Source: Sabellastarte sp. h YS-2021
Lineage: Eukaryota; Annelida; Polychaeta; Sabellida; Sabellidae
Direction of reading: 5' to 3'
Assembly: GCA_964017235.1 (NCBI GenBank)
Contig: OZ024936.1
Span: 48,845,028-48,909,027, forward strand
Length of the DNA stretch: 64,000 nucleotides
Shown piece after piece: positions 21,939 through 60,042 of the stretch. Under the pieces are notes generated by a model, which had not been told where the DNA came from, searched no databases, and worked only from the letters and a program-made list of their open reading frames with translations. Position 1 is the first letter of the stretch; every line of letters starts with the position of its first letter. The translations under genes and the position numbers were made by a program.

Positions 21939-22082
21939 TCAAGGAATGCAAATTACTAATCCCAATCCTTTGTATACCATCTCTTGACCTGGCAAGGGAG
22001 TCATATTAATCTCAATCAAACTTATGTGGACGGCTTCTTGATTTTCCGGATCAAATCTCCAAGAGAATACATTTTGCTTTTT
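21939..22082 (-). CDS. Gene A exon 7 (last coding exon)
   Basis: Acceptor tttctgaaatt reads aatttcag|AA on the minus strand. Codes for residues 263-309 from KKQNVFSWRF to LGLVICIP, then TGA. Homologous to exon 4 of the same gene. The exon continues untranslated to a GTAAGT donor after 21917. Confidence 0.9.
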   Translation of the reverse strand, partial: KKQNVFSWRFDPENQEAVHISLIEINMTPLPGQEMVYKGLGLVICIP

Positions 22083-25000
22083 CTGAAATTACCAAAATTA
22101 TATAACTGTGATGATATGGTGGTAATAATTTAATATTGTCATTGATTACATTAAATTAAATTATTCAGTATGTTTGGGAATTAATAAAAGTAAAAATAAA
22201 ACAGTTTTTATTGCATATTGTCAAAATAAATCAAAACAACAAAAATGAGATTCTAAAGTTGCAGAAAAAGCTTGATTTGTTAAATAAATATGCTACACCA
22301 AACAGAGACAAAAATTGAGGAATCTAAGAACAGACTTGATAAACTGTTGAAAATACAAACAAGAGGGGCCTTTATTAGATGAAAGAATGTATGGTGTGAC
22401 AGTGATGTAAAAGTACCAAGGTTTTTCTCAATTATGAAAAAGAGGCAAACCTCAAACGTAATAAAACAAGTTCAAGATTATGATGGCAATGTTATAAGTA
22501 ATGACCATGACATTTTAATTGAACTTCAAAGGTTCTATGTTTCCCTCTTTAAAAGTAGTCTGGTTAAAACAGGTGACATAACAAATTATTTAAACACAGT
22601 GAATGTATCAAAACCTCTCTCACTAACTGAGAAAATGAAACTCAATAACCCAATACAAAAGGCTGAACTTGATATTGCTGTTAAAAATTTAAAATCTGGC
22701 AAATCTCCTGGTTTAGATGGCTTAACGCCAGAATTCTATAAATGTTTTTGGGAAGATTTATACATGCCATTTAGTAAAATGGTGGAAATTACCTTTGGAA
22801 TAGGTAGTCTTCCAGAAAAAAAAATTGCTGTAGCTCAACTTATTTTCAAAAATGGAAACTCTCAGTTGCTCAAGAATTATCGACCTATTAGCCTAACAAA
22901 TTATGGTTATAAGATAATAGCTTTTGTTCTATTGGAAAGAATTTAAAAAGTTATACAAAATTTGATTTCACATGATCAGACAGCGTATATAAAGGAAATA
23001 TCCATTGGTAATAATGTTAGATTGTTAAGTGATATCATGGACTATTGTTATTTGGCAAAATAATGGCATTCTTCTTTCTGTAGACTTTGAAAATGTATTT
23101 GATACAGTTGAATGGAACTTTAAATATGAATATTTGAGAAAGTTCAACTTTAGTGAAAGATTTATCAAATGGGTTGAGGTAGTATATACTGACAAAAATA
23201 ATGGTTGCAAATATAATGGATACTTTACTGAAAAATAAAACTAATTAACCAGGGGACTAAGACAAGGTTGTCCAATATCAGCCTTTTTGTTCATCATAGT
23301 GGATGAAATATTAGCAATTAAAATCTGAAGCAATGATGCCATCAATAGAATGTCAATTCAAGATTGTACATTTAAAGTAAGCCAATATGCTGATGATTTA
23401 ACTCTTACACCCTCTGATCTTCAATCTGTCTCATAAAGTATGAATACAATGAAGTAATTTTCAAAGGTTGCTGGACCAAAGCTAAATTTAGATAAAACAG
23501 AAGGTTTGCTTATTGGCAACCTGAAAAACAGTAACATTGAGGAATATTTGGGTATTTCAATAACAAACAGACTCACAAAAGTTTTAGGAATTTGCATTGG
23601 TAATACCTAACTTAACTGGAATGCAAAATCAAATAAAATACAAAATATTATGAATTTATGGGTTAAAAGAAACTTACCAATATTTGGAAAGACTGCTGTT
23701 ATAAATACATTGTGTATACCAAAGCTTGTATACAATTTCCTTTTAATACCTGTACTAGAATATGCTATAAAGAGGCTTGAAAATATGATGATTAACTTCC
23801 TGTTTAAAAATAGGCAGCCTCTAAATGGTAAATGTTTGATCAATATAGTTGAAAATGGTGGCATTAATCTTGTAGATATCAGATACAAAATATCAGCTCT
23901 AAAGGCATCATGGATATGTTGGTAGTCAAATGAAGCACCTTAGGTAGCTTTTGGAAACTGTTTCTTGCAATGCACTGGATGTAATTGTGACATGTTCTTG
24001 CATATGAATATATGTGACAGCAATGACTCCATACTAAAACATTTGCCAAGATTCCGCAAAGAAGTTTGGCTTTCCTATTATTCATGTACACTTAAAACTG
24101 AAATACAAGATCATAATTTCTTAACTAGCATCATATGGGGCAATAAATATATTCAATTTAAGGAATAATGTTTGTATTTTAAAAACTGTATTAATGCTGG
24201 AATTGGAGGGTCTGTGCTGAATTGATTTGTCGTTGAGATGGACATAAAAATATTTTCCTTTAACTTGCTCCATATTTACACTCATGAGGTTGGGGAGAAT
24301 AACTGTGGCTATAACTAGTCCTTTTGTTATATCTTTTGTGCCACAACCTATGCAGTCCACTCTTTTGGTGATACACCCAATCTTTTCCCAAAAATAGAGG
24401 TGAGTGAACTCAACCATGAGTCAACACCTTGGAGAGCATATCTGTTTACCTGTCCATGGGCAATGCTCAGGACATTACTTTTCATACTGTGTACATACAT
24501 GCCAGTTTCATTGAGGATTTCAACTCTTTTGTCGAGGGTGATGCTCTATCATGTTGTGAACAATATAATATTGATTGACTTAAATCTACATCTGGACAAA
24601 CAGGATATTTGGTCACAGAAATTTACTACCTCTGTCAATACGATTTTACCCAAATCATTGACTCCCCAACCCATATCCATGGCCATAACTTAGAAGCCCC
24701 GTGTGTGAAGGACACCTCACAGGTGGTTTGTCAAATGGTTATAGGGGGTGCTATCTGACCATCTTGCCATCATCTTTTCCGTCAAGATACCTACCAAGGT
24801 ACCCTGCAAATTCAGGCAGTTTAATACACAGAAAATTGACAAGATAAATATTACTGACTCCAGAGATGATATCCTAAATTCTGATCTAATGAAGCATTCT
24901 CACACAACAGCCAGTTTACTAAGTCAGGCTCTAGACCCTAGGCACTTTGGAACACTTTCAAAAGAATCCTACAAAAATCATCAACCGTCATTTTACCTGA

Positions 25001-28000
25001 TCATATCAGTGCTGTTGATTTAGCCAATACCTTTGGACATTTTTTCAGTGTCAAAATTATGAAAGTCAGAGTCATTACAGTCATAGGCGGCAGTCTCTGC
25101 TACTAGACCAAGAATAACTAACAGCACCCTATCCTCTTTCAGGCCAGCATCTGAGGATGGCATCCTCAAAATTCTAAAATCTCCTACCAAATCATGTGAT
25201 CTTGACCAAATACCAACTTCACTGGTTAAAGAGTGTGTTGACATCCAAGTCCCTCCAATTACCAATATTGTAAATTACTCGCTCAAAGAAGGAAGTTTCC
25301 CCAAACTGCTTCAAAACCTCATATGTCACCCCCTTCTCAAGAAACCTTGTCTTGACAGAAATATTCTAAAAATTACAGACTGGTGTCCAATCTAAATTTC
25401 ATGTCCAAACTGATTGAAAAGCAGTGGCTTAACAGTTAAATAGTTACATTAATATGGAAGGATTCTCCAATGTTAACCACTCTGCTTACAGGTGATTGTA
25501 TTCTACAGAAACTGTACCCCCTAAAATGCAAGACAATATTACTGCTTCAATGGACTCAGCTAAAGCTATTGCGCTCACATTGCTGGACCTCTTAGCAGCA
25601 TTTGATACTATTGACCACAATGTTTTTGACTGCCTCAGGAACTGGTTTGGTGTTGATGGCACTGTGTTGAGGTGGATCAATCCCTATCTTACAAACCACA
25701 AAAGAAAGGTTAAACTTTTAATAGCTTTTCAGATATTTTCTCACTCCCCTATGGTGTACCCCAGGGTTCTGTCCTGCGGCAACTCCTTTTTACCCTTTAC
25801 ACTACCACCCTTCAGTAATATTATTCCCAGTTTTAATATCACCAACCATCTGTATGCTGATGACACCCAAATATATCTAGCAACAATAGGAAGTTTGATT
25901 CCAGTTTTGCTGAGCTTACTGAGTGTCTTACTTATGTGCAAAAGTGGATGGATGGTGTGAAACTGAAACTCAACCAGAGAAACCAGAATTTATCGTAATC
26001 GGTGATAGACATGCCAGAGAGTCCCTTGTGCAAAAGTTTTCCCACCCAGTTTCTTGAAAATTCTATCTCCTGTACTGATGAAGTAGAGAAGCTAGGTGTA
26101 ACTTTCGACCCTGGAAACACTTTCACCAGTCATATAAGGAAGGTTTGTTGTGTCTGCTACTATCATTTCAAGGACCTAAGATGCAACCAGAAATTCTGCA
26201 GTGTAAAGACTGCAGCATTGCTTACAAACTCAATGATTAGCAGTCAAATTTAGTACTTCAATTCCCTACCCTATGGCATAAATAAAAAAACATGTGGCTA
26301 AACTCCAAAAGATTCAAAATGCCTTTTGTAGAATTGTCTTTAGACTTGATAGAACAAGCCATGTTACTCCAATCTTCAATAACTACACTGGCTCCCCATT
26401 TAATACCCAACTTTATTCAAATGCATGATCTCAGGCGGATCAGATAGTATCTGATGGATGATTCTGCTGTCCGGGCGAGAAATGCCCTGGTGAGCAGTCA
26501 TCTGGTCAACAGTCATCTGGTCAGTTTCAACATGCACAAATTGCAGTGTATTCAAAACACCTTGTAGGATTGTTACAAATTGCAATAGATACTCACAGGC
26601 TACTCCTATTCTAAAAAACTTTTTAAAAAAACGTTTGAATTTTGGTGTATTTTCAAACTGCCACTTTAGTTTATAAATTTCTTCACAGTGGTCACCCAAG
26701 CTATTTCAGCCCTCATCTGTCTATTCATTGTGGAAAATATGGCACAAAATACAACCACCCAGATAAAAGGTTCCTTGAGGTTCCTCAATACTACTCATCA
26801 GTACACAAATCCAAAAAAACACTTCGGTCACAGTTTTGCTTTTGATGCTCCCACACTCTGGAATGATCAACCTGATGATGTCCATTCTGCTCCAAATCTT
26901 GCCTGTTTCAGGAAAAAGCTAAAATCTTATCTCTTTCATAAGGCTTTCCCACCTTATCATGTAAACTTCCCGGCATCCATGGTGGCGACCTGGCTATGTC
27001 TATGGAATGATGATTATTGATTATGTACCTGGTGTTGTGCCTTAGAGACTGCCTTGGCAGAGATTAAGCACTAAAAAAGTTCTGAATAGAATAGAAAAGA
27101 ATAGAATAGAATCTCATGACATTCAATGCCATTACATTCTCCCAGGCTTATCATCCTTGATCAAAAACAGTAGTCTCACTCGTAGAAATTGACTCTTTCC
27201 TCAGGTTGTGCTAGAAAGGCCATTGGTAGGCGAGGCTTTGGAATGGCTTCCCCCACTGAATTTAACAGACTCCCACCATTGGTCCACACACAATAACAGG
27301 TTTCTGAAGCCTACTTGTTAAGACTAGCATATCCTCCACCATAGTATATCCCTCCCAGTGGGCACTAATTTAGATCGCTACCTGCCATGTTCCTGTACTT
27401 GCCCTTTTTGACCTCAAGCATATTAGAGGATGTTGTTTCAATCGTGCGCTACATAAATGTTTCTATTCTATTCTTTTCTTCCAAGAGAATGCTAGTTGCT
27501 AAAGTGGGCCGATTAATCTTCCTTACTTTCCATAAGTGATCTGAACGTCGTGTTAAATATAATCTTTGTGAATCGTGGAAGGTAATTTTGGATGTGTTTT
27601 TTTTGTTTGTTTGTCTATTTATGTTCAAAATTACTCCAAACCTAATGAATACAAAATATTTATGTGGGTAAGGCCTGACCAAATCAGGAGCTAATTATAT
27701 TGGGGGAAAGGCCAGATCATACTCTGGATACAAAAACATTCCAAACTCTTAACAGTCCCATTTGAGTATTTGGGTGGAATTACAACATGGGGATACTCTG
27801 CTGCCTTTGTAGATTTAAGAGCACTAAGAGTGCTAATCAGTCCAAGCAGGTCTCGAGTCTAAAATTGGCTAAATCTTAAAATCTGTTGTGAATGTGGAAC
27901 TGGGGTAAAATATTTTTATTTGTTAACAGATTACCTTAACACCTTCCAGTGTAGTTTTTACTCCATGTGGGTTGGTTTCAACTTTGAATTCTGCAATATC

Positions 28001-31000
28001 TGTAACTTCAATTCGAAGTAGAATAAGCAGGAAGAATGATCTAGGAACTGAAATGTATTTACACATTTTAACAGATAAAGTATTATTATGTGGCCAATTC
28101 CTAAATTAGGTCTTGTATGTTACTTCTTATCAGTGACATTTGGTAAAACTTGTATTAATACAACATAACATAACGTAACATGGTCAATCTTATAGAAAAG
28201 TACTTTGATGGCAAAGATGACAAAATGAATAAAAATAATTAGGTTATAAAATGTATTCTTTAAAGTTATTAATTAGGACCAAGTGGGACATATACCTGGT
28301 ACATATATAGGTGAAAATATAGAAATTCTTTACAGTGTCATGCATATATCGTCTTAATTGATTTCAAAAATGATTTTGTCTCTATAGAATAAATTTGTTG
28401 TATCAAAACAACTGAATTATGGAAATATTGTAGATAAATATATAAAAGTGTGAAAATATGCAGTTTCTTGAAATATTTTGCTTAAAATAAATATGTTTCT
28501 CATGTAAACTTAACATATTTACATAAAAGTTGCAAAGCATTTCCAGCAGAGTTTTCATATCATTACTGACCTTACTGACAGATGCTTCCCTGCTGTTGAT
28601 TTTATTAAAAATCAGAAGTAGTACCAAAGACAACAGATAACAGACAATAACATTCAGTTAAAGTAGACAACAATCTGTTCAAGTTAATTTCATCATGCAC
28701 ATTTTTTTGCAAATATTCAAAGATAAGGATTTTCCACTCAGGGTAAAATTGGGATGGGTCTTTGGCATTTAATAGGGCTGTTCCATTTGCAGGATATATC
28801 ATAAACTTTGCTCCCAATCAAGATAACATTGCCACTTTTTGGGAATCTATCTTAAGGCAATCACAAAGCCATCTTGTATGGAAAATACAGTATTGCCCGA
28901 TGGGTATGTGAAAATGCTCATAAGTCCATCTGGTACAGTTTACGACAATTTCCAACTGTTAGAAATTATATTAAAAGTCTCCAGATCCTTTTCATACTTT
29001 TATCATCTTAAACCCATCGTAAAGTCATCTTTTTAATCTTACAGATATCTTAAACCTATCTTAACAGTTGCAAAGCAAAACTTCCACTCTTATATATAGT
29101 GATTGTAAACCTACCTTTTCATCTTAAGTCAATCTTTAAGGGTCAATAAACCAATTGGATGGATAGGGAGATAATTCCAAACCTATCGGAAGATTTTTGG
29201 AGACAATGGCAATGTCAATTGGAAAGGTATTGGAAAAGTATTATATACATTGGGACACATCTTAAACCTGTTATAAACTACACCCCTGGAGTGTGCATTT
29301 TGTATTTCTTCCAATTATGTAGCAATCATAAACTCCTGGAAATGGAACAACGCAATAAGAAGCTGGAATTAATGCCTCACTTATAAATGTGGTCTTAGTT
29401 GAAATTTGTACCTAAACGTTATTTTAATTTTATTACAAACATTTCTTGTGCATTACCTGATTATATTACAGTAGTGTCTTGTGCCTTACCTTATTATATT
29501 GCAGCAGTGTCTTGTGCCTTACCTGATTATATTTACAGCAGTGTCTTGTGCATTACCTGATTATATTACAGCAGTGTCTTGTGCATTACCTGATTATATT
29601 ACAGCAGTGTCTTGTGCATTACCTTATTATATTTACAGCAGTGTCTTGTGCATTACCTGATTATATTACAGCAGTGTCTTGTGCATTACCTTATTATATT
29701 TACAGCAGTGTCTTGTGCATTACCTGATTATATTAACAGTAGTGTCTTGTGCATTACCTTATTATATTACAGCAGTGTCTTGTGCATTACCTGATTATAT
29801 TTACAGCAGTGTCTTGTGCATTACCTGATTATATTAACAGTAGTGTCTTGTGCATTACCTTATTATATTACAGCAGTGTCTTGTGCATTACCTGATTATA
29901 TTACAGCAGTGTCCTGTGCCTTACCTGATTATATTTACAGCAGTGTCTTGTGCATTACCTTATTATATTACATCAGTGTCTTGTGTATTACCCCGATTTT
30001 ATTACAGCAGTGTCTTGTGCATTACCTGATTATATTACATCAGTGTCTTGTGCCTTACCTGATTATATTTACAGCAGTGTCTTGTGCATTACCTGATTAT
30101 ATTAACAGTAGTGTCTTGTGCATTACCTGATTATATTACATCAGTGTCTTGTGCCTTACCTGATTATATTTACAGCAGTGTCTTGTGCCTTACCTGATTA
30201 TATTTACAGCAGTGTCTTGTGCATTACCTGATTATATTACAGCAGTGTCTTGTGCATTACCTGATTATATTACAGCAGTGTCTTGTGCCTTACCTGATTA
30301 TATTTACAGCAGTGTCTTGTGCCTTACCTGATTATATTTACAGCAGTGTCTTGTGCATTACCTGATTATATTACAGCAGTGTCTTGTGCATTACCTGATT
30401 ATATTACAGCAGTGTCTTGTGCCTTACCTGATTATATTTACAGTAGTGTCTTGTGCATTACCTTATTATATTACATCAGTGTCTTGTGTATTACCCCGAT
30501 TTTATTACAGCAGTGTCTTGTGCATTACCTGATTATATTACATCAGTGTCTTGTGCATTACCTGATTATATTACATCAGTGTCTTGTGTATTACCCCGAT
30601 TTTATTACAGCAGTGTCTTGTGCATTACCTGATTATATTACATCAGTGTCTTGTGCATTACCTGATTATATTACATCAGTGTCTTGTGCATTACCTGATT
30701 ATATTACATCAGTGTCTTGTGCATTACCTGATTATATTACATCAGTGTCTTGTGTATTACCCCGATTTTATTACAGCAGTGTCTTGTGCATTACCTGATT
30801 ATATTACATCAGTGTCTTGTGCATTACCTGATTATATTACATCAGTGTCTTGTGCATTACCTGATTATATTACATCAGTGTCTTGTGCATTACCTGATTA
30901 TATTACATCAGTGTCTTGTGCCTTACCTTATTATATTACAGTAGTGTCTTGTGCCTTACCTTATTATATTACAGCAGTGTCTTGTGCATTACCTGATTAT

Positions 31001-34000
31001 ATTAACAGTAGTGTCTTGTGCATTACCCCGATTTTATTACAGCAGTGTCGTGTGCATTACCTGACTATATTACAGCTGTGTAAGTCCTTCAGTCTGAATG
31101 AATGAGAAGATTTGCTGTACCATAAGATTCCAATGATATAAAACACCACAGATACCCACATATAATTGGTATAGAATCTATACCTATATATCTAAGATTA
31201 GGGTTGTGACAGAGTGTTTTGGTACTCCAAAACAGACCAAGTATTTTGACTAACTGAATGCAAACTAACAAATTTGGAAACTCATGAAACTATAAAAATA
31301 TTGTGCATTACCATAAAAATCAATTTACACCCTTATTATCACTCAAAATTAGTCTACTGAATATTTATTTTTGAGGTATGTTTTTCTCATAAAATATTTT
31401 CGACGAATTTGTTTTCAACATACAACCATATTTGTCTTCAAGACTACCCCAGTTGATTTAACAATAACGTTTGGTACTCGGAGTTTGGTTGTTTACTAAA
31501 CAACAGATACTCCAAAAACTGGTTTTCTCTAAGTCACATCCCTCATATAAATAAAGTCCTGTGTTGCATATCAATAACAAACTTACGTAGGATGTTTAAT
31601 TTTACAGGCACTCTGCTTTTCATGGAAGTTGTAGACCCAAACAGAGCATTGTTTGCAGCTCCACCCGGTACAGCCGTAAAGGTAAAGCCTTGTGTGTCTC
31701 GGAACGTCACTCTTCGTTTTTTTGGACAATCCCTTGGACACTCATTTTTTCCCAGATTTTCTGTTTCTAATGATAAAAAATTATGTATTATTAGTGACAT
31801 GTATTCTCTGGCTTGTTACAATATGAAACAACATTTAAGTGTACTTAATATTGATATACTGGGTTAACACTTCATTTTTGTGGCTGTTTCTGTAATTTCT
31901 AATGCATATACTCATAACAGTAAGCTAAATCAAACTACTACTTTTCTATTAGTAACCAATATGTGTGAGCTGTCAGTTTCCCCAATTTAAGAGGCTACCA
32001 AGGGTAGGAAATTGTTTATACTATGTGATGTTTGAATTCTAATGCATTTCATTGTTATTGGATTGTAACTAACCATACGGTACATAACCACAAAAGTCAA
32101 TAACCACAAATGTAAATAACCATAAAAGTAAATAACCACAAATAAATTTGATTGATCCATGGTATAGTGTGTCATAGAACCAATATGTCAATGACTAAAC
32201 TGACCCATTTCAGGGGTCATGACTTTGTTATGTGAATATGTGTGACAATGGAATGTGTGACTATTAAGTTTAAATCTTTAAATTCAGAAAAGGTATAAGA
32301 TTGGTGAATAAAAATGCAAATTTATGAATAGTACAAACCATTAACACAGACTATAATTCTCAGATCACCATAGTTAATCAATTGTCCTGACAATGGTGTC
32401 AAATCAATTTCAAAGAACTGAATTTTCTGTGGATCCCCTTCTTTATTGTTGATCTTCCATCTGTAGATATTGTTCTTTTTCTGTGTTCAAAAGGGAAACA
32501 TAAAACATTAATTATCTTAAAACTGTTGATTACCACAGAGCTCAAACATTCGCCCCCAAAACCCGTCAGCACCAATCAAACCGAAATATTGTTCACACAA
32601 TTTTATAATTTCGTGAATTGATTTTTATAATCATTTTCCATTAATCACCAAGTTAACAGAGTTTCAAATTATTAATACTCCAATCTATTCAAGTCTTATC
32701 AATCTTCAAATCTGGTCAAAGGGCCAAATCATTCTCCACTTGAAGGCCAAACTTTTACAAATAAAACCTTTTCATAAGTACAATGACGTAACTTGAAATA
32801 ACTTGACCTTAGAATCAACAAATTGTTGGTGGTATTCAATTTGTTTTTATATAAAACTTTCTGATTTTTAATGAAAGCGGGGTCTGACGACAGGAAGAAA
32901 TAATTTAATTTTGGGAAAGATCTGGATCATATTCTGGATACAGAAAAGAAATCCCATTTTCAAAGTAATAATATTTTCAGCTACTTTAATTTTCTGGTTG
33001 GCTATATTTCAAAAGCAATGAGCTGATATGATATATAATCATTGAATTATGATGAGGGTAGGGGCTAAGGGCCCGCCAAAGAAGGAAGAGATTATATTTT
33101 AGAAAAAGATCTGAATCATATTCTATACACAAACAAATCTTAATCTAAAACATGATATCAGAACTTCTTAACTCATGTATGCAACTGGTAAGTTGAATCT
33201 TTGGTCTAGTCTGTTAATTAGAAATTACCAAGAAATACATACATTATAACCACAACAACTTTAACGTGCAAATTCTTTGTAAAAGACTTCCTTTACTCGA
33301 ATCCTTTGTAAACTATTACCTGTATAGGGGATAGTGGCTGCACAATCTCTGACACACCAGTCATTGATGCCTCTACGGCTCTGGCATTTTCCGCAAAGAT
33401 ACTGAATCCATACAGTATAAATGGGTCATCCACTGAACATGATGAAAGCAAAAATGGAATAGAATAAAATTTAGTTTATAAGTAAATATGACTAGATTAC
33501 ACGACTGGACCTGAATTGCAGTAATTTAGAAATTATTAGTTTTACTGAATGATCTGCTGTCTGTTTCACACTAAGACAAAATAATCATAGTAGAGCATGA
33601 GTATTTCTAAAGACAGATGTTATATTTTTATCTAAAAATCAAAAATAACCCCCTAACTGCCGCACTTTTGAATGTGTTTTGAACTGTTAAGCATAGTACA
33701 ATCAGAATCATCATTACAATGAGAAACTCAAATGTCAGAATTATGGAATCTCCAGGGAGTTCACAAGATGCTGCCCAAATGCAAGGTGACAGAGGTTATT
33801 CAATCAATACTGAACAGATAAATTTGACACATTGATAATACAAACATTATAAGGCACGGTATTGTTTCTGAAACATTAACAGTGCTATGTAAACTGAAAG
33901 ATCATTTTAATTGGGATTCTTTGCAAACATTCAGTTTTATATGGCAATTGGTGTTCTCTCCGGTCACTGTGCTCTAGAAAAGGGACATTTGTACTAGTGT

Positions 34001-37000
34001 ACTATTGCTCTACTGTGTCAAGTGTCATAATGAATACACTGGACTCTCAAAACAAAAATATGGACCTGGAAGATCAGTCTGTCCTAATTGAGGGGTAAGA
34101 CTGGGAGGGTAGATTCTGAAATAGCAATTCAGTAGTAGAGGTGTGGCATCTTAACAACAAGAGAAAAATGCAGGTTGATATTACTTCAGTTTTACATGAT
34201 GATGATGGTAGATTTCTTTTATTACAATGCAGCTATGACACCTACTCATCGATAATAGCACATGCATGCATATGCCCCTATCTCAGATATTTTAGTTCAG
34301 CTCTTTTTTGTTGCAGCTTATGATCACACAGACAGTATGATATCACCTGCATTTGTGACATTTTTATCTTGACTGTACAGTTACAATCCATATATAACTT
34401 AAAATTATGTATCTATGAAATCTTGGTCAGTCATTCATAATTCACATACAAATTCTCAATCCTATATTATTGCTGCATCAGAGTAAGATGGATATAATAA
34501 AGAAGGTTTGGTAATCTGAATTAATTTACCACTCTCAGGATTTTTTTCAGAAGAAGTTAATGAAATACTGAAATCACTTTTTTAAGTAACGGCTAATATC
34601 AATTTAAAGCTACATTTAGTAAGAGGCTAATAATTTTAGCCACACAACCCCACACTATAGAATCTCCATTTCAGAGTTATAATAATACCAAGTAAAATAC
34701 TAATCCATATCCAACCAAAGCTAAATTTGGTAAATTGTTTTACTGAAACACACTGTGGCAGCAAGTATATTGGTCTTTAAAATTAGGTCAAGGCAACCCC
34801 TAAAAACTGAGCTTTGTAACAGTGTGCTTCTTTGCAACTTTGTTACTTCATTGTTTAGTGTAAACTAGATATCAATTATAATAATCCTAATGAACGTTTG
34901 GAGCATGTCAAACAGAGGCCACATGCAGCACTGCCTGTGAAAACCAGGCTCCAAAGAATGTAACTGAGTGGCTATTTCTTAAGAGGAAAGTAAGAAAGTT
35001 CCACAAAGTTGGTGCATAATGGCTTAAGGATTGTGCATAGAGATTTCTCAGTTATGGTTGTGGAGTATGGGAAACCTAGAGGACCAAGTGGCAACACTGC
35101 AGAGTGCAGAGTTTTTGGCTCATTGCGACATTCTAAACTCAAAGCTGTCCCCTGTGGACACTTATCAACATGGGAGTCGTATTGGAGGCCAAGATTTGGA
35201 TATATGAGGAGGGTGACACCTGATTTCAAAGAATGTCAATTGCAAAAGTACAAAGGAGTTGTTTACAATGTTCTTTGAGCCTAAAAATAAATTCATATCA
35301 TTCGGACTCACTTTCAGAGTTTGCATGCAGTGAGGAAATTTGTTGGTGATAGTGTTATACATAATTGGGTGTGAGTGTAAACAAGGCCGAAAGGGGTTTC
35401 GGTCTACTAGCATGAGTCACAAAGCCATAAAAGAAACGAGTTGTGCACAGAAGCGGTCACCCATCCCAGTACTAGCGTAGCCCATTACCGCCAGACTTCA
35501 GTGAAGAGGCAGGCACTCATCACACTTTGCCACAATTCATGGAAGTCCGGAGACAAAAAAATGAAAAAAAGTGATTTCTAGAAGAGCAAGCCTCATTAGA
35601 GCTCACACTTAAAAATATTAGTTGATGTTACTATAAGACTGGACAATTGACTGGATATTTTTAGATCAGCCAACTACAATAGGTTACAGTATTCGGACCC
35701 TATTTAAAATAGATGTACTTACTTGATATTCTGATGGATACTGGTTGATCTGTACTAAATCTCACTCCAGACCCCTTAAATACATCCTCTGGGTCGCCAG
35801 TGAAGAGAGGTGGGCTTATAGTGGCTTCAAAAGGAGGTCTATTGTGGTGTTTTATCTTCCTCATAATAGGGCAATCGCCTGGACAATCTTTAAATGTTGC
35901 TGTAAAAAGTAAATGTTTTTACTACTATGTATCCCTCAAAACTTCATCTAGTTTGAGAAAGGACAAATCTCCACAGCTTGTGGATCCGGCATAAAATCGA
36001 CCAAATAGCATTTTGTTATCAATATTTTCTTTTACACCGCAATGGTGAATAAACTTATCAAAATTGAGCAACAAATAAGGTAGTTTTGATCATTTAAAGA
36101 AATTTATATTGTTTGTTAACTTATTTTCCTTTTGATTTTCCTTTGTTAACTTATGAGCAATTGCCAAAAAACGGATACTGTGGATCATATAGATTGAAAA
36201 CCGAAGGACGCTGAAGTTGTTTGCCTTAATTTTTAGCAACGCTCTAAATATGTCACATTTACAAGCTCCCACAAGTAAGACTCTATATTTATTAAGCAAT
36301 GAATGACAAAAAGTGATCAGACCATAAGTAAGGATGTTATAAGCATTAAAAGAAATTGTCTTGTCTAAGTTAATTTCTTTCCTGCAAAAATATATAAGCA
36401 TAAAACTGCAAGTCTCATTTGCAGCCATGAACATGGGATTTGTCGATACATTTGTTTCAGTTTGTCTACGTTATTGACAGTTCTTGGCGTCATTTTTGTG
36501 CAGTATAAATAAAAGTTTGCTTAATAAATAGAGCATATTTATTCATTCTCTATGTTGGTGTTATTATCATAAATATAAATGCTGCTATTTCCTAATATTT
36601 TCTAATCAACGACTCCTTATGTGTTATGATGGTGACATTGTAAGTTACCTCACACTATAACCATGTTAATTATTCTAATTAAGAGCAGTTTATAAGCCCT
36701 TCAGGGCTGGACAATGCTACATTTTTCTTGTTCCTGTTTGTATATTGTATATTACATTTCACTATAATAAAAAGAAATGGAAATATATATTTGGAAATCA
36801 AATAAAGAAAAGTACGAACAAAATCGTGGCCTGTTGATTTAATTTTTGGCAATTATAATAGTATGAAAAATATTAATGTTCCACATATTCAAAATATAAG
36901 GAAAAACAAACTTAAATTGTTTTCAAAAAATATAATTATACTGTAGACATTTCAAGCAATTACCGTTACCTTGCTGTCATCTGTATCTTGATTTTGATAA

Positions 37001-40964: not shown

Positions 40965-41010
40965 CTTTGTGAGAAATACTTTCTCATTGATGTTAAGACA
41001 ACAAAACACC

Positions 41011-41020
41011 TTTATTTATA
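41011..41020 (-). promoter_or_regulatory. Putative TATA box of gene A
   Basis: TATAAATAAA on the minus strand, about 47 bp upstream of the ATG, implying a short 5'UTR. Gene B has CATAAATA at the aligned place, inside a region otherwise conserved between the two promoters. Confidence 0.5.
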
Positions 41021-41635
41021 GTGCTTTATGACCATGGGGACTATAGATTTGATTTTAAATTTGCACATTAGCACGTGGTTGTGCCAATAAGACATCTATC
41101 ATCAGAAAATGTCAATTATTTTCTGATGAATTGTAACAGCTTCAGCATTCTGCCAGCCACCTGATGCAAATATATTAAGAAATAGTAGGTTAAAGTTTGT
41201 TAAATGAATTAATTTTGTACCTCAGCATGACCTCAAACCTGAGTAGATTGTGGATCAAGATTACTTTGTTTTGGAAGCCCTTTTGGATCAGGAGTCCCTT
41301 GTTTTGGAAGCCCCATTGAACATTTAAACAATGGGGGTTATGCTTCAGATCATTTTTAATATGTCAAGACAATGCAAATGGCGAAACTGTCCCTATTTGC
41401 AGTGAAATTGTAATTTTTCTGGGCTATTGGACTACACCAGAGCTACTGAGACTGATACTGAACATGTCATACTAAAAATGTACTGTTCCACCAAAATCAC
41501 ACAGATGTTTATTTATCTGAAAAAAAAACCTTAAAAGTTTTTTCTCTATTTTCTTGAATTTCCCTTGCTTTGTTTCAGAAAGGTTGTGAGTTTGGACCCC
41601 ACCATCAAATGGAAGAGATAATGGTTGGTTTTCCT

Positions 41636-50456: not shown

Positions 50457-50639
50457 CTGTAACATACTATTATATCTACTTTTATGACAGGACTAAGAGC
50501 ATTATTTTATTTATCCCAACTGCACAGTTACAGCCAAAGCTCTGAAGTGACTAACATTCCCCGAACTGAAAGACAGAGGCTAAAAGGATGACCAATTATC
50601 AATGCAAATGAGGTTCTTTAGTCTGCCACTAGGGATAGG

Positions 50640-50764: not shown

Positions 50765-50816
50765 GAGGTTTAAGTTTGGTCTTAGTAAACATTGACAAAT
50801 ACAGTCACATCAGGTG

Positions 50817-51164: not shown

Positions 51165-51212
51165 CAGGTGTGGTTCTTGCCAGTTAGATGTAGAACATAT
51201 TTACTCACCGCA

Positions 51213-51218
51213 TATTGT
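51213..51218 (-). other. Conserved splice donor after the gene B stop codon
   Basis: GTGAGT on the minus strand 8 bp after the TAA, aligned with GTAAGT in gene A. Confidence 0.6.
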
Positions 51219-51226
51219 TGCACATG

Positions 51227-51373
51227 TTATGAAGGAATGCAGACTACTAATCCCAGTCCTTTATATTCCATCTCCTGACCTAATAAGGGAGTCATGGTAA
51301 TCTCAATCAAACTTATGTGGATGGCTTCTTGATTGTCTGGTTTAAATATCCAAAAGAATCTGTTGTCCTTTTT
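51227..51373 (-). CDS. Gene B exon 7 (last coding exon)
   Basis: 147 bp from atttcag to TAA. Codes KKDNRFFWIFKPDNQEAIH through LGLVVCIPS, one residue longer than gene A. Confidence 0.9.
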   Translation of the reverse strand, partial: KKDNRFFWIFKPDNQEAIHISLIEITMTPLLGQEMEYKGLGLVVCIPS

Positions 51374-54300
51374 CTGAAATGACCAAAAACTGCATAAATT
51401 GTGATGATACAGGGATTATAATGTTGTATGATGAGAATACCTTTCGACACTGGTAGCGTTTGATTAAATTATTCGTTATGTGTAGTATTTTAATATGAAT
51501 ATGAATTTGTCTTTACAGCAATGATAAACCTATGGGAGATGAATATTATTTTCCTTCTTGTCAGATATGACATAAAAAAGATATTTTCCAAAAATTAATA
51601 TATATAGATTTACCCTAATTTCATTGTTGTGATTTCAATGGAAAATTTATTGTCATTTTGATATTCAGTAAAAACATTGTTAAAAATCTTGAGATATTTG
51701 GTAACACATTACCTTAACACCTTGCAATTCTTTCTTCACGCCATTTGGATTGGTTTGCACTTTGAATTCTGCAATATCTAAAACTTCAATTCTAAATCCA
51801 ATCAGCAGGAAAAAGGATCTTGGAACTGAAAAGTATTTCCACAGTTTTACCAATAAAATTTTATGTTACATTTTGTTCTGTTTATTTTATCAGTGACTAT
51901 TGATCAACCAATATGGAACTCTAACAAGAACCTGTTGAATAATATTATTTTGGGTTAGAATAAGCTCTCGACACATTGATCTAAAACACCATTTCATCGA
52001 TGAAAAAGTCAGTATGAAGTCATTTTTAGCATTTTTTCTATGTTGTAAATACACAGGAGGTACCCTATGAACATATGCAGCTACAAATGTGTGTCAGAAG
52101 GAAGAATTAATGAAAAATAGAATACCAAATATGAAAAGTGTATTAGAACAGTGTTACGGTAGTTCAGATTATAAAAAATGGTTAAAAATCATAAGGTTAT
52201 GTAAAATGTTTTCTTTCAAATCATTATTTAGCATCAAGTATTCTATATCCACCTTGAAGATATACAGGTAAAATATCTTCAAGGTGTCATATCACATATT
52301 GACTTAATTGACCTGATTCAACATTAATAGCATGTACAAGTTGTTAATTTTGCATTCTTCTTGTTTTTGACAGACTGATTGCATGCTTCACTATCCCACT
52401 GGTTGACAAGTTTGACAGATGATCGCCAGTGTGGCCATGAGTTTTAATTTTCTACAAGACAGTATTGGGAAATAATGATTTATAACAATAGCTGTTCTTA
52501 ATCCTAGGCGTTTTCATTGTACTTATAAATTAAACTTGAAATATGAAAATGTTGCAGATAATTATTCAACTGCATTTCAAATTTTCAATTTCTAAGCAAT
52601 ATTTTATAATAAGTATAAAAGGTTTTATCCTCTTATTATTCGGTATCCTGCGAGATGCTCCTTTTTGTAAAGGTCCTGGTGAGTGGTTTCAGAACCCCAT
52701 TTACTCTGCACCAGGTTTCTGAAACCTTGTTTTTTTAAATGGGAAATAGAAGAAAAAGAATTGCGTGTTAAAACCAAAAAAAATGTTGTACAGAAATATT
52801 TCTTTATTCTAACATAATATAAATGGGGAAAAATCTACATGTATATCAAAGCATTTACAGTGGAGTTTCGGTGTCATTCATGTCATCAGGTGTTTCCCTG
52901 TTGTTAATTTCATTAAAATTCCAGCAGTATGGTCAAATAAAGCAAATTAATGGCTAATGAACAACACAGAGAATAACACTAAGTTAAAGTGCAATTATAC
53001 CAGATGCATAGCCTCTGTAGATGGGATCATAACATTCTGTTCAAGTTAATTGAATGATATTTTGCAAAAAGGTCTAATTTGGGGTTGTATGCTACCATCA
53101 ACAGCAAGGGTAAAATTGTCAAACGCCCTTACCATTGCCATTGGGAGATGAATCCATACAGAGATCACAGCCTGTGATTAGATGCTAAACTTGCAATGAC
53201 CACACACTATCTCAAACATTTTCAAAGAAGCTACAATTAATGTCTCATTTTTCATGCGGTCATACTTTAAATTTTCACCAAAAGGTTAATTTCAGTTTTA
53301 TAAAAGGTTTCTTTTTTTCGCATAGGCCTCACTGCATAACAGCAGTGTGAGACCTTAAGTCTGGGTGAAAGAGGAGAATTTACTACACCAGGAAACCTGT
53401 AACAACAGAACACCACAGACAATCACCGCATAATTGGTATAAATCAGGACTGTGACATAGTGAACAAGTAGAAAGTTTAGCTAAAATTTCACTAATTTCA
53501 AAGATACTGAAAATGATTAATTTTCACCAAGTCTCCCCTAAAGAAATCAACACACATTAAAAGTTTTCACTTGGCATTAATTTTCACCATACAATCTGAT
53601 TAGTTAAAATAGCTAAACTTAATGCCCAGAGTAAATTTACAGTTACACATAAATCAATGAGTTCTGATAAATAAGCCAGGTAATTTAATAAACCAAATAC
53701 AAAGTATTAAACTATGTAATTGTAAAACTATTAAAATATTGTGTATTAATACCGTAAATTAGGGTAAACCTTATTATCAGTCAAATATGTCAATGTATTA
53801 TCTATTTTTGTTATAATTTTTCATAGTTTCACATATATTTGACACTCGATAATCGATAAATTGTTCAAATCAGCTGCCATATTTACTTATCTGGTACTTC
53901 CTGTTGGTTTACCCATATGAAGGTACCAGAATTGGGTTGGTTAAAACCCAACAAATACACAACCCAGGGGAGCTAGGATTTTTGTATCTGTCACTCCTTG
54001 ATTTTTCAACCTATTATGGTTTTATGATGGTAGGGGGAGCTTCTCTGCGTGGCTGTATAACATGTTGAGGTGGGTAGCCTGGCTTTTCACAAATATATAA
54101 AAATGGTCTGCATGGGCATACTGGCTAAAACATAAGCTATGCCCCAAAGCCCCAGTTTTCACCTCCAAGTAAGATCCCTCATATAAATACAGTCTTACGT
54201 TGTATTCAAACAAGAAACTTACACAGGATTGTTAGTGTCACAGGGACTATGCTTTTCATAGACCTGCCAGACTTGAACAAGGCATCGTTTGCAGGTCCAC

Positions 54301-57300
54301 CAGGTACAGCCGTAAATTGAAAACCTTGTGTGTTTGGAAATGTCACACTTCGCCTGTTCGGACAGTCCCTCGGACACTCATTTTTTCCCAGTTTTTCTGT
54401 GGCTAATAATAAAAAAAACAAGTGTTATTAGTGACATTTACTCAGAGGATGACTCTCTGGTTTGTTGTAAGAGTAACCAATATTAACATGCAACCACTTT
54501 CCTTATACTGAAGAAAAAAAATTACACTGTCAATGAAAATCGATAGGAAGAAGCAAGGCTATAACATGTCATTAAATACCTGTAATTAAAATTTATATAT
54601 TACATATGCTTGTAACTAAATATGCTTGTGTCCTGAATTTGTAATCTGTAAAGGTCACTTATTTTATTTCCTGGTCTTTATTCCCCAATATTTTAGGGCA
54701 AATAATAATGCATAATGAATAATAAATGGGGACACCCCCAGTAATTAAATCTCAGACAATATATTCCTAACCAAATTTTCCTATTTGGCTAGACAAAAAT
54801 ATTATTAATTCACGGTTTTATGTGCCAAAGAACCAGCTTCTCACCTATAAAATAAACCATTTTGGGGGGTTATAATTCAGATAAATTGATTTATGTAATA
54901 TTAAATGAGTGACAGTTTCAATTGAAATCTTTGAATTTTGAAAAATATTAGATGGTTCAAAAATAAGTGCAAGTTTATAAACAGTACAAACCATTAACAC
55001 AGACTATGATTCTCAGATCACCATAGTTAAGTACTTCTTCTGGCAATGGTGTCAAAACAATTTCAATGAATAGAATTTTCTGTGGATCACCTTCTTTATT
55101 ATTAATACGCCATCTGTAGATATTGTTCTTTTCCTGTGTTAAAAAGGGTGAGATAATACATTAATACTTTACAATAAGGCTCAAAATTGCCTCAAAACCC
55201 AGTCAGCACCATTTAAATTGATATAGTGCATAAATAATTTTATAATTTTATCATTGTAATTTAAACAAACCAGTTTACATCAGTCAGTACATTAATAGGC
55301 TTTTATAATTATTAGTGTTTATAATAATTTAAGCATATAAATTAACGAATCTGTTTAAACAGAATATTACTGAGATATCTAAATGTTTTGTTAAATAATT
55401 CTTTGCTTAAAAGTAAAACTTTTACAAATGCATCCTTTTACAAATACAATAACACATTTTTTTAGATTGAAACTACTCATGTAAATAAACATATTTACAC
55501 AGAAATTTGTCAGTGAGTGAACCCCCCTCTAATGAAACCAATTATAACACAATTATTATTGTTATCGCAATATTAGATCTTTACTCTCTCTTGATGCAAA
55601 AATTGGCACAAACTGTGACTATTTTTTTATTTTACTTTTAAAGGGTGCTTCTAGTGGGGAATTTCACATAATGTGGTAAATTTTACATTTTTCGGCTCAC
55701 ACATGAATCATGCAAGCATGTGTTTGTTTTGTCTGTGTTTATCAGTGTTTATGGTAATTCTAAAAGTGATGAACAAATCTTCCTAACATTTTGGCGTGGG
55801 TAGGGCTTGGCATATGGAAGAAGTGATTTAATTTCGGGAAATGATCCAAATCATATTCTAGACACAAAAAATCCCAAGTTCTCAAAGGTTCCCTGTACAA
55901 CGTATTTTCAATTGCTGTGGCTTTCTGATTGACATAACTCCAAAAGTAATGAGTGGACCTTTATTAAAATATATAAATATTTTTATGTTGGTAATGTCTG
56001 TTGAAAGGAAAATGATCCTGATTGTATTCTGGATACAAAAAGAAATCCCAAATATTCAGAAACACCCTTCTAAGGAAAAATATATGTACCCTACACCCCA
56101 AACCAAAATAATCTGATCTAATACGGTAAGCTCAGATGCACGCCCTATGAATCTACTGGGAATTTTTATAATTTTACATGTTGTATGCTGACATTACCTG
56201 CCAATCCTTTAGGCGTTCCACAACATCAATGTGAGGTCAAGGTATATAATGTAACTTCTAATTTTACTCTCAGGCCGTGCCATGCTTTAACATGGACTTA
56301 AAATACTTATGTGTGCAACATCATAATGTAAATATAATCGAGCCTGTTCAGCAAAATTACCTAGTTGAATATAGTTTGACCTCAACAACCTAAACATGGA
56401 AATTTTACGAGAAAGGGCCTTCCTTGCTCCAACCCAAAACACACTGATACCTGTACAGGGCCTAGTGGCTGCACGATCTCTGACACTCCAGTCATTGATG
56501 CATCAATGGCTCCAGCATTTTCAGCTGAGATACTGAATCCATACAGAACAAACGGTTCATCCACTTGTGGTTGGTGAAAGCAAACAAATAAATACAACAA
56601 TATTACAATATTATATTGAAATTATTACTGGCATGGGACCTGCTGGATCAGTTTGGAAATACCTTAACCTTATTTTTGCCTATATTATTTGGGTCAACTA
56701 ACCATGTAACTGTAACAAATTAACAGCTCCCCCCCTCTTTCTGTAGGGCTCACTTTTCAAAGTGATGTTGACAAGTACATGTCAGATTTACCCACAAACC
56801 CATCCCTAACATAGAACTTTATCTTCTCTACAAATAGGCTAAGCCAGGTGGTCCTTGGTTACCCCTCTCTGATGTGACTTATGAGCCCTTGTAGTTTCGA
56901 GGCAGTGCCAGGTATGACCCCGGTAGATCCCTCTTGATAACATACAAAATGTATACCTAGATGAACTTATCTAGGTCCAATAGGGGAATAAGGTTATGAG
57001 CTTTGATGGTTAACAAGGTTATTAGTGTGTGGTTTGGATTAGTATATTTAAACACAGGTGGAAAAATGACTAGCAATTCACATATTTTATACTTCAGGTA
57101 CCTTTAATTAATGCACTACTATCAAGAATCACTGGCTTTGGTTTTAGTGTAGAAGAGAATTAGATATGGGGAGGACAATGCACCAGCAGAAACGCGCTTG
57201 CTGACGATTTAATACAAAAAGATACTACAGATACACAGAAAGAAAGAGAATAACAGAGAATAGGCCGACAAAGTAGCGGAAGAGCTGCAGAAATGAAGCA

Positions 57301-60042
57301 ACCTGAAGCTACTGGCATTGAACTCCATACTACCTATAATAGATGGAAGATCTGAACTGTATAAAATTTCTGCCTACTTTCCAAAGGAAAGGGAAGATTA
57401 AAGAAGGAATCTAATCTGTCTAATCCAACATGGATTTTCATAACACTCAACATTCATCATTTAATAGACTCTAAGGTGCAACTAGGCATAAACAAATGGA
57501 ATATAAGTAGGCCTGGCAGGTGATGTGAGGGATGTAACACACTGTATTAGTTGGAGGAAAGTTATAAATTTCAAAATTTCAAATCTAGGTGTTACTGTTT
57601 TTGTACAAATACCAGTTCTGTATAGGTTAATGGCCAAGTAAGTGTCCAGTATTAGAAAATAATGAATTGTTTACGAGGTCCCAAAAGGGGTCACAGTGGC
57701 AGAGTGGTAACACTCTCGCCTCCCACCTGTGAGGCCGGGGTTCGATCCCCGTCACGGCCTCAAGTGGGAAAGCTGGTAGTTGCTTGCCGTTGGTCGGCAG
57801 TTTACAGTACAGAACCCTAACGAACTCTATGTACTGGTTTCCTCTGCCCTTCCAACTACCCGTCGTGATATGACCTGTACAGTGTTGAAAGCGACGTAAA
57901 ACCCCAAATAAATAAATAACGAGGTCCCAAAGGGACCGAGTCAACAGTGTATTATCTTCTAATATTTGACACTTATGGAGCTATTATACCTATTTAAAAT
58001 ACACCCATTCCTTAGTTTGTTATTTTAAAGATGTTGTTATCATCCTTACTTTTTATTCCTATATTTCTGGTGTGCTGGTGTGTATTTTTTGTTTTTGTGA
58101 TCATTTTAGTTGAAATAAATGTAAAAGGTGTCTTTGGAAATGTTTTTAAAAGGGCTTTTTTATGGCCAAAATCACAGAGCGGAACAACTGATATTGGACA
58201 CTTTTAACAAAAGCATATCACTCAGGTGTAATTTAAACAGTGTACACAAACACACATTGTACCATGAAGGGCAGGCTATATTTGGAGTGTGTGAATTGCT
58301 GTCTGCCAATAAAACAGGCATAATATGATAATAAAAAATGTGCTGTCGTATTTAGTAGAAAACAAACTTATAATGGGTGTACTAATTATCCCGTTTAACT
58401 ACAGTATTAAGAGGTTATTTATATTAACATGTGTATTTTAATAACAGTTTTATAAATATAATTCTAAAGTGTTCACTGAATTGATATATCTTATTGGACT
58501 TCCTCCCCTCAGCTGCATTGGGCACAGCCGGGTGTTAACCAATAAGAGGTTTCGGGTAGCTATGATGGATACGCTTTTGCAAACTGGTATGTGTTAAGTT
58601 TTTTCTTAAAGGAGGCAATAGGTGTTGCATTGTGTACATTGTCAGGGAGGTCATTCCACATCTTAGGAGTATCAAAGGCAAAACTATTTCCAAAGAATGA
58701 CTTGTAGTGTGAAGGGTTGAAAGAAGGAGGTGTCAGGTAGTGATTATCAGGATGCATTATGCCTGGAGCAACCACAATTTAGGAAAGGAGACAACTAAAA
58801 CAACCTCAAGTAACTGGTGGAGATTAACTGTGGAGGGGGCAGTTATTTCTATAACTTGTAACTTTAATACCCAACTTGTTGAAGTGTGATGAGGCAATGT
58901 ATCACATATATACTATATATACATTTATTTATTTGGGGTTTTACGTCGCTTTCAACACTGTACAGGTCATATCACGACGGGTAGTTGGAAGGGCAGAGGA
59001 AACCAGTACATAGAGTTCGCTAGGGTTGTGTACTGTAAACTGCCGACCAACGGCAAGCAACTACCAGCTTTCCCACTTGAGCCCGTGCGGGGATCGAACC
59101 CCGGCCTCAGAGGTGGGAGGCGAGAGTGTTACCACTCTGCCACCGTGGCCCCTTACTATATATACAGTACACATTTGTGGATCCGTCAACCACAATAGGT
59201 GACACAAAGTTTTTACCCTCTTTAAAATAGATGTACTTACTTGAAACACGGATAGATACTGCTTGCTCTGTACTAAATGTCACCCCAGACCCCTTGAACA
59301 CATCATTTGGGTCACCATCAACTGGACTTGGGCTTATGGTTGCTTCAAAAGGAGGTCTGTTACGGTGTTTTACCTTCCTCAGAATTGGACAATCAGCTGG
59401 ACAATCTCGGAATGTTGCTGTAAAGACATTGTATGTTTCATAAAGAATTTCCTCTCAAAATAACAATTTTGAAATACTCTGAAAAGCAAAGAAAATTTTC
59501 CACAACTTGTAGATCTGGCAAAAATCGGCCCCTGCTTGCAAGTTGCGGTATGCTCCATTCAGCACATGCAACCAGCCCCCTATTTTACTGTGCTAGAATC
59601 TGGGCCATTGCTGCGTAACATACTGTAATCCTGATACATTCCACCTACAATAAAAACTCACTTTACTCTGGTGGGTGCTGTATTTACGGTTTGCAGTGTA
59701 TGGCAATATTTGGACAGTGGCCTTTTAGTGCTTGATTCTCAACCTATCATAAAATATGGAGGTCAAGTGTTTCTGTATATTATGTCAGGTTATGTGTATC
59801 AAACTTGTTTCACATTATACTGAAAAAAAGGTATAAAAGTTCTTATAAATTTAGCAACAAAAAACGGAGCTCTGATCATTTAAAGAACCAAAAATTGTCT
59901 CTATGTTATTTCATTGGAAATTAAGTAGTGAAGCTTAAATTGTTTTCCCGTTATAATTTTTTAAAAATGGAAAAAACTAACCTGATACCGTAATAAATAA
60001 GACAGTCACTATGCAAAAAACAAAAACTTTTGTGTGAGACAT
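51227..60042 (-). CDS. Gene B: secreted two-module CPxDCP protein, seven coding exons
   Basis: Tandem paralogue of gene A. Coding exons are 59982-60042, 59241-59417, 56451-56563, 54992-55133, 54223-54402, 51713-51825 and 51227-51373. They match gene A exon for exon in phase and (except the last, +3 bp) in length, giving 310 aa. The signal peptide is MSHTKVFVFCIVTVLFITVS. All six module Cys are conserved. By hand count about 77 of 309 aligned residues differ. Differences fall most in the signal peptide and the tail of exon 2; the CPxDCP motifs, YGFSI, GDLRIIVCVN and YKGLGLV are nearly fixed. Preserved frames and splice sites despite diverged introns indicate selection on both copies. Its introns are mostly shorter (intron 1 is 0.56 kb against 5.0 kb). 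Function is unknown; probably extracellular like A. Confidence 0.9.
51713..51825 (-). CDS. Gene B exon 6
   Basis: 113 bp, phase 1 to 0, between tttcag and GTAATG. Codes FPRSFFLLIGFRIEV to LQGVK. Confidence 0.9.
51826..54222 (-). other. Gene B intron 5
   Basis: AT-rich, 2.4 kb. Parts align with gene A intron 5. No minisatellite here and no exon-like segment recognised. Confidence 0.55.
54223..54402 (-). CDS. Gene B exon 5
   Basis: 180 bp, phase 1 to 1, between ttattag and GTAAGT. Codes GKNECPRDCPNRRSVTF, opening module 2. Confidence 0.92.
54992..55133 (-). CDS. Gene B exon 4
   Basis: 142 bp, phase 0 to 1, between aacacag and GTTTGT. Codes EKNNIYRWRINNKEGD to GDLRIIVCVN. Confidence 0.92.
55715..56055 (+). 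repeat. Copy of dispersed attactccaaa repeat
   Basis: Shares gtgggtagggctt, gaagaagtgattt, gatccaaatcatattctaga and a second half-unit with the other copies. Lies in gene B intron 3. Confidence 0.65.
56451..56563 (-). CDS. Gene B exon 3
   Basis: 113 bp, phase 1 to 0, between accacaag and GTATCA. Codes DEPFVLYGFSISAENA and MTGVSEIVQPLGPVQ. Confidence 0.92.
56564..57672 (-). other. Gene B intron 2, 3' part
   Basis: About 1.1 kb without a recognised exon or repeat. Confidence 0.45.
57687..57918 (+). mobile_element. tRNA-derived SINE, family 1, full length
   Basis: Complete head with A and B boxes, body and (AAAT)n tail. Perfect 13-bp target duplication acgaggtcccaaa (57673-57685 and 57919-57931). 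In gene B intron 2. Confidence 0.93.
58545..58790 (-). mobile_element. L2-like LINE 3' fragment
   Basis: Minus-strand translation has FGNSFAFDTPKMWNDLPDNV and FKKKLNTYQFAKAY, an L2 C-terminus. 5' part absent. Confidence 0.75.
58924..59154 (-). mobile_element. tRNA-derived SINE, family 1, full length
   Basis: Minus-strand copy. Perfect 12-bp target duplication actatatataca (58912-58923 and 59155-59166). It ends about 75 bp from gene B exon 2. Confidence 0.93.
59241..59417 (-). CDS. Gene B exon 2
   Basis: 177 bp, phase 1 to 1, between tttacag and GTAAGT. Codes TFRDCPADCPILRK, RPPFEATISPS and DVFKGSGVTFSTEQ. Confidence 0.92.
59982..60042 (-). CDS. Gene B exon 1 (signal peptide)
   Basis: 61 bp of coding from ATG to CAG|GTTAGT, phase 1, encoding the 20-residue signal peptide. 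Confidence 0.9.

What the first reader, a model, noticed from the sequence alone, without database searches (positions are those of the whole stretch)
21939..60042. Tandem pair of genes for an unrecognised secreted two-module CPxDCP protein
Seen: 14 coding exons with matching phases and lengths, GT-AG borders, signal peptides, about 75% protein identity by hand count, and six conserved module Cys (26, 30, 162, 174, 178, 307 in A). Introns are far more diverged than exons, so both copies are under coding constraint. I cannot place the family; the extracellular role is inferred from the signal peptide only. It may be a lineage-specific secreted family.
Basis: partly seen in the sequence, partly recalled or inferred. 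Interest (0 to 1): 0.82.

Follow-up and report, generated by a model that had tools for sequence, protein, structure and literature searches.

The report
Tandem genes for unplaced secreted protein
Two neighbouring, well-preserved animal genes, with a diverged relative and a leftover first exon close by, encode a secreted protein built from two copies of a three-cysteine module that matched no catalogued protein family; it is real and orderly, but its job is unknown and unplaced secreted families are common.

Summary
On the MINUS strand lie two 7-exon genes: A (40964-21939, 309 aa) and B (60042-51227, 310 aa), with equal intron phases, equal exon lengths except the last (144/147 nt), GT-AG introns, signal peptides, 232/310 identity and conserved Cys 26/30/162/174/178/307. 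dN/dS is 0.31 (bootstrap 0.22-0.42); codon-position differences are 53/37/82. The two modules are homologous (28%, E=5e-15), each a three-exon cassette of the same phases.

The "pair" belongs to a larger array. Just outside the window lie a diverged member C with one recognisable module of the same exon plan and an orphan promoter plus first exon D. Protein and 5'-flank searches of the host genome found no other credible member, but the first two had missed C.

No family was found: Pfam none for A, B and their modules, sub-threshold hits for C; NCBIfam and PDB none. Reeler was tested and not supported. Best reading: a small orphan family of secreted, disulfide-closed, probably beta-rich, non-enzymatic binding or matrix proteins. 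Taxonomic spread, expression, structure and function are untested.

The parts
40904..40964 (-). Gene A exon 1: signal peptide MSHTIAFTLCTVAVLIVAVS, ends phase 1
35723..35899 (-). Gene A exon 2: module 1, CPGDC motif (177 nt)
33320..33432 (-). Gene A exon 3: module 1 middle (113 nt)
32339..32480 (-). Gene A exon 4: module 1 end, C162 (142 nt)
31587..31766 (-). Gene A exon 5: module 2, CPRDC motif (180 nt)
27935..28047 (-). Gene A exon 6: module 2 middle (113 nt)
21939..22082 (-). Gene A exon 7: module 2 end, C307, stop (144 nt)
59982..60042 (-). Gene B exon 1: signal peptide MSHTKVFVFCIVTVLFITVS
59241..59417 (-). Gene B exon 2: module 1, CPADC motif
56451..56563 (-). Gene B exon 3
54992..55133 (-). 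Gene B exon 4, C162
54223..54402 (-). Gene B exon 5: module 2, CPRDC motif
51713..51825 (-). Gene B exon 6
51227..51373 (-). Gene B exon 7, C307, stop (147 nt)
40965..41214 (-). 5' flank of A, similar to those of B and of orphan exon D; TATAAATA about 56 bases before the ATG
60043..60341 (-). 5' flank of B, similar to D (311 of 441 columns, exon 1 included) and A; CATAAATA at the TATA position
61320..61506 (-). Fragment similar to intron 1 of B (135 of 191 columns): probable relic of the D copy

Best explanation
A and B are working, tandemly duplicated genes of a small orphan family of secreted animal proteins. SHOWN by sequence: the protein is a signal peptide followed by two homologous modules of about 140 residues, each encoded by a three-exon cassette entered in phase 1 (module 1 is also left in phase 1, so a cassette can be duplicated without breaking the frame); the module duplication is the older (28% identity), the gene duplication the younger (75%). 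Each of five modules (two in A, two in B, one in C) has exactly three cysteines, in the pattern C-P-x-D-C ... C. INFERRED: the genes are expressed; the module is a compact, mostly beta domain; one N-terminal Cys pairs with the C-terminal Cys and clamps the domain ends, while the other bridges the two modules (or, in a one-module member, two chains). The invariant residues are mostly structural (C, P, F, L, I, W, T, Y, one D), with no catalytic-looking constellation, so the protein most likely acts as a non-enzymatic extracellular binding or matrix protein (body fluid, mucus or shell/cuticle matrix).
For: Gene models, phases, Cys; coding constraint; module homology (alignments). C: joined exons score 47.2 bits, E 2.3e-13, with a profile of the four A/B modules, the best of 2000 shuffles 10.1 bits; in an unselected scan of 2307 open frames its last exon scores E 1.3e-5 and the other two E 0.11 and 0.12, in order and on the same strand; splice sites of the same phases are available. 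The 15 invariant columns of five modules are C2 P3 D5 C6 F20 F60 L62 I67 W101 I113 I118 T121 P122 Y130 C138. Similar 5' flank with TATA-like box found at three places of the host genome, all in this array. Sequon N164 in both A and B; residue propensities lean to sheet for A and B (helix 0.26, sheet 0.38), hardly for C (0.35, 0.37) (a crude count). That phase 1-1 cassettes are typical of shuffled extracellular domains is established knowledge (Patthy), recalled.
Against: No expression data, so transcription and splicing are not shown. Disulfide pairing and function are inference only. C's first exon was not identified and its exons were picked by similarity before the shuffle test, so that test overstates the case; C could be a fragment.
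Confidence: 0.55

Rival explanations
1. The module is a diverged member of a known beta-sandwich family below sequence detection, most plausibly Reeler-like (ECM or microbe-binding), and the gene is an ordinary divergent member.
For: By eye the order 'PVSIRIS..F.LYGFSI.A...' then 'K..NIYRW' then 'QKIQF..I' runs parallel to Reeler's V-strand, F-x-G-F-x-x-x-A and K...W motifs; the global profile alignment pairs these strands. Reeler matches exist in this genome (9 places), and a Reeler protein is reported among shell matrix proteins of Crepidula, with mention of Mytilus edulis (PMC9365450, passages seen).
Against: hhalign probability 0.1 (global) and 0.05 (local), in per cent, against five host Reeler sequences; Reeler not among Pfam hits at E<=10 for A, B, their four modules or C (HMMER's filters drop most weak matches); by eye Reeler's C...TH motif is absent and the cysteine plan and exon borders differ. 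The Reeler profile was thin.
Confidence: 0.2
2. Secreted immune recognition or effector protein diversified in an array.
For: Array with duplication, divergence (C) and loss (D), a pattern reported for the bivalve C1q-domain family (PMC6835236, title and start of abstract only).
Against: Few copies found; purifying selection on both modules (dN/dS about 0.29 and 0.28). No inducibility data.
Confidence: 0.2
3. One or both copies are decaying pseudogenes.
For: An orphan first exon D and an intron-1-like fragment suggest that copies in this array do decay.
Against: Both A and B have full open frames, all 12 introns GT-AG, dN/dS 0.31 with bootstrap upper bound 0.42.
Confidence: 0.04
4. Side question: orphan exon D is an alternative first exon of B rather than a dead copy.
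For: D keeps a B-like and A-like 5' flank, TATAAATA, ATG, signal peptide MSHTMAFTLCITAVLFVVAS and a GTAAGT donor of the same phase; no later exon of its own was found before B.
Against: An intron-1-like fragment at 61320-61506 suggests that D was once a whole copy; no expression data.
Confidence: 0.3

Closest known systems
Reeler domain (PF02014)
   Same: Secreted, about 130 residues, similar order of a few strand motifs and one Trp, by eye
   Different: No statistical similarity (Pfam scans); by eye a different Cys plan, no C...TH motif, and exon borders unlike those of the host's Reeler frames
Lipocalin_7 / FABP (PF14651)
   Same: Part of module C, mainly its last exon, gives a sub-threshold hit, E 0.002, 18.5 bits
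   Different: Below the curated cut-off of 25.4; none of the four A/B modules matches at E<=10; covers part of the profile only
Fetuin/cystatin-type proteins (recalled)
   Same: Seven exons, two homologous modules of three exons each (recalled for fetuins)
   Different: No Pfam cystatin match; by eye no cystatin helix, Cys plan different
Lineage-restricted mollusc shell matrix proteins, as a class (PMC9365450, passages seen)
   Same: Secreted and without a recognised domain
   Different: Phylum of this genome not established here; no proteomic link; taxonomic restriction untested

Membership tests
Reeler (PF02014) | Match to the Pfam Reeler profile over its cut-off | tested here: not met
   0 families for A, B and their four modules at E<=10; Reeler not among the three hits of C
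Reeler (PF02014) | Profile-profile similarity to Reeler domains | tested here: not met
   hhalign Prob 0.1 (global), 0.05 (local), in per cent, against five host Reeler sequences; the profile was thin
Reeler (PF02014) | Reeler fold (beta-sandwich) | not testable with these tools
   spliced protein not eligible for the fold tool; exon peptides uninformative
Lipocalin_7 / FABP (PF14651) | Score over the curated cut-off | tested here: not met
   C 18.5 bits against 25.4; A and B modules no match
Cystatin/fetuin | Pfam cystatin match | tested here: not met
   no match at E<=10
This orphan module (defined here) | CPxDC near the start, one C-terminal Cys, no other Cys | tested here: met
   5 of 5 modules; the definition was drawn from these modules, so this is a description, not an independent test
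This orphan module (defined here) | Three-exon cassette entered in phase 1, internal introns in phases 1 and 0 | tested here: met
   4 of 4 modules of A and B; C fits with the splice sites listed, the start of its first exon being chosen between two acceptors of the same phase

The most novel reading that the evidence does not exclude
The three-exon C-P-x-D-C...C unit is a new extracellular domain family, confined to one animal lineage, that spread by in-frame cassette duplication into one- and two-module proteins, with an orphan promoter and signal exon (D) now serving as an alternative start of gene B.
Probability: 0.3. Interest if true: 0.45.

Novelty: new member of a known kind. Interest (0 to 1): 0.33.

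Why it matters
It is a clean, testable example of how a secreted protein family grows: cassette duplication inside a gene, then gene duplication, divergence and partial loss in one array. If relatives turn out to be limited to one lineage, it is a new extracellular module to characterise; otherwise it fills a gap in the domain catalogues. Unplaced secreted families are common in invertebrate genomes, so without function or structure the surprise is moderate.

Tried and rejected
Dreissena as the source: genome size (1.786 Gb) and the window's GC (about 35%) resemble the figures in PMC9210306 (passages seen), but quagga byssal proteins Dbfp7 and Dbfp4 (sequences from PMC6474901, passages seen) found nothing (without a positive control, as the tool notes) and the host contig with COX1 is 15,345 bases against 67 kb reported for the D. 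polymorpha mitogenome. The species stays open; COX1 reads open with the invertebrate mitochondrial code. A search with a recalled Dpfp1 repeat was empty and uninformative.

Reeler, Lipocalin_7, cystatin/fetuin and FN3 were considered; FN3 only by eye and through the empty Pfam scans; Reeler was tested by profile comparison and dropped as a membership claim. PDB sequence hits (penicillin-binding proteins, best E 0.35; Nup159 E 0.32) are chance level. Viral and prokaryotic contigs gave no relative (352 and 228 pattern matches, none confirmed). Literature: 'CPxDCP' 0 papers; six peptide strings, one paper, on conotoxins, taken as a chance short match and not opened; nothing in the listings points to this family (listings only, except the passages named). 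The loose pattern scan, the bacterial-type promoter scan and Rfam (0 matches at gathering score in the window) did not help. The host-genome protein searches with B and with a module of A missed gene C, which a local search found, so absence elsewhere in the genome is not proven. The only other hit with C, on contig C1 at E 5.8, lies in a charged, low-complexity-looking open frame and was taken as chance.

Full report
Observation. Six-frame reading finds the CPxDCP motif four times, all on the minus strand, at 35885, 31740, 59403 and 54376. Requiring GT-AG borders, matching phases and conserved peptides between the copies gives two complete models: A, seven exons from 40964 to 21939, 309 aa; B, seven exons from 60042 to 51227, 310 aa. 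The signal exons were found by listing ATG-started, hydrophobic, stop-free stretches ending in a phase-1 donor; among many candidates one matching pair stands out, MSHTIAFTLCTVAVLIVAVS and MSHTKVFVFCIVTVLFITVS, both 61 nt and both ending G|GTTAGT. Exon lengths are equal for six of seven exons, the last differing by one codon. Identity is 232 of 310 alignment columns.

Is it coding? Differences fall 53/37/82 on codon positions 1/2/3; dN 0.150, dS 0.484; ratio 0.31, 500 codon bootstraps 0.22-0.42; the short signal peptide alone gives 0.264/0.330. Exons are 77-87% identical end to end, while introns align only in patches and intron 6 not at all at E<=1e-3. So both copies have been kept under purifying selection on the protein.

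Anatomy. Modules 1 and 2 of B are 28% identical (E 5e-15 for the single comparison). In A and B the internal introns of the two modules fall at the same alignment columns (in B after ...IRVS / ...LTIL, phase 1, and after ...PVQ / ...GVK, phase 0), and each cassette is entered in phase 1; module 1 also leaves in phase 1, module 2 ends in the stop codon. Hence a three-exon cassette was duplicated inside the gene before the gene itself was duplicated. Cysteines outside the signal peptide are confined to C26, C30, C162, C174, C178, C307; N164 is a sequon in both copies, A has one more at N288.

Surroundings. A tblastn of A and B against 50 kb on either side of the window, and later a scan of 4250 open frames of at least 25 residues in the 184 kb held (50 kb left, window, 70 kb right) with a five-module profile, show more of the family to the right only. 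Gene C (window-extended coordinates 85778-85662, 83870-83755, 82965-82822, minus strand) has one recognisable module with three exons of the same phases; the start 85778 is one of two possible acceptors. A profile of the four A/B modules scores its joined exons 47.2 bits, E 2.3e-13 among 2001 sequences, the best of 2000 shuffles scoring 10.1; since the exons were picked by similarity this overstates the case, but in a scan of 2307 unselected open frames the last exon alone has E 1.3e-5 and the other two rank next after it, at E 0.11 and 0.12. C's first exon was not identified: 15 weak candidates up to 110000, none like MSHT. D (69304-69244) is an orphan first exon with an A/B-like 5' flank, TATAAATA box, signal peptide and GTAAGT donor; a fragment like intron 1 of B lies at 61320-61506, but no later D exon was found. 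The 5' flank was found in three places in the genome: A, B and D. No further family exon was seen in the 50 kb to the left or in the last 20 kb fetched to the right (remaining hits E 1.1 or worse). Genome-wide protein searches with B (13 matches), with module 2 of A (8), with C (4) and with a signal-plus-module start (3) returned only this array, apart from one chance-level hit with C at E 5.8; these searches score only a few candidates and the first two had missed C, so they are lower bounds.

Placing it. Pfam: 0 families for A, B and the four A/B modules at E<=10 (weak matches are mostly filtered out). C: three sub-threshold hits, Lipocalin_7 E 0.002 (18.5 bits against a cut-off of 25.4), PKD_5 E 0.024, Zn_ribbon_NOB1 E 0.12. 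NCBIfam: none. PDB by sequence: nothing better than E 0.3 in three searches. Prokaryotic and viral contigs: no relative confirmed. By eye the module resembles Reeler in strand order; five Reeler sequences of the host genome (frames) were aligned and compared by hhalign: probability 0.1% global, 0.05% local. Membership is therefore not claimed; a shared fold stays possible. The spliced protein could not be folded here; AlphaFold on exon peptides was uninformative (mean pLDDT 47.2 and 73.7) and Foldseek found nothing in the PDB for the better one.

Mechanism. The five modules keep 15 invariant columns: the three Cys, P3, D5, F20, F60, L62, I67, W101, I113, I118, T121, P122 and Y130. Except for D5 and T121 these are hydrophobic, aromatic, Pro or Cys. 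With a signal peptide, three Cys per module and a sequon in the linker, the most economical reading is a secreted, disulfide-clamped, non-enzymatic domain used in single or tandem form as a binding or matrix component. The odd Cys count predicts either an inter-module bridge (A, B) or a dimer (a one-module C). These last steps are inference.

Source organism. G000 has 1.786 Gb in 647 contigs; its COX1 reads open under the invertebrate mitochondrial code. Dreissena was considered and is not supported. The phylum was not established, so 'lineage-specific' is untested.

Verdict. Ordinary in kind, new in detail.

Noticed in passing
window 29444-31081, intron 5 of gene A: A 33-bp minisatellite of about 49 copies (92% matches) whose unit is a multiple of three and reads open over long stretches of the + strand, giving spurious ORFs.
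   Followed up: no
window 237-1109, 9479-13285, 18315-18809, 25496-25960; L038 225-2492: Retroelement debris: reverse-transcriptase matches over the cut-off at 9479-12283, 18315-18809 and in L038, weaker ones at 237-1109 and 25496-25960, none at 22383-22946; a tyrosine-recombinase match at 12284-13285 beside a reverse-transcriptase frame, as in DIRS-like elements (label recalled).
   Followed up: partly
window 4397-5356 +: A single-exon frame (312 aa from MVPNKFKILFVIQWLLIISL) with a hydrophobic stretch near its N-terminus and no Pfam match at E<=0.01.
   Followed up: partly
window 37094-37326, 58923-59155, 61045-61277; window-extended 71332-71573, 88622-88864: An interspersed repeat of about 230-240 bp, roughly 90-97% identical between the copies compared, sprinkled through the array; the copy at 61045-61277 sits near where exon 2 of the orphan copy D would be expected.
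   Followed up: partly
G000 C14:48805-48811 kb (about 34-40 kb left of the window): Collagen-like Gly-Pro-rich frames with a signal-peptide-like start nearby: a possible short collagen gene.
   Followed up: no
window-extended 69304-69244 (G000 C14:48914271-48914331): Orphan promoter plus signal exon D, phase-compatible with exon 2 of B.
   Followed up: partly
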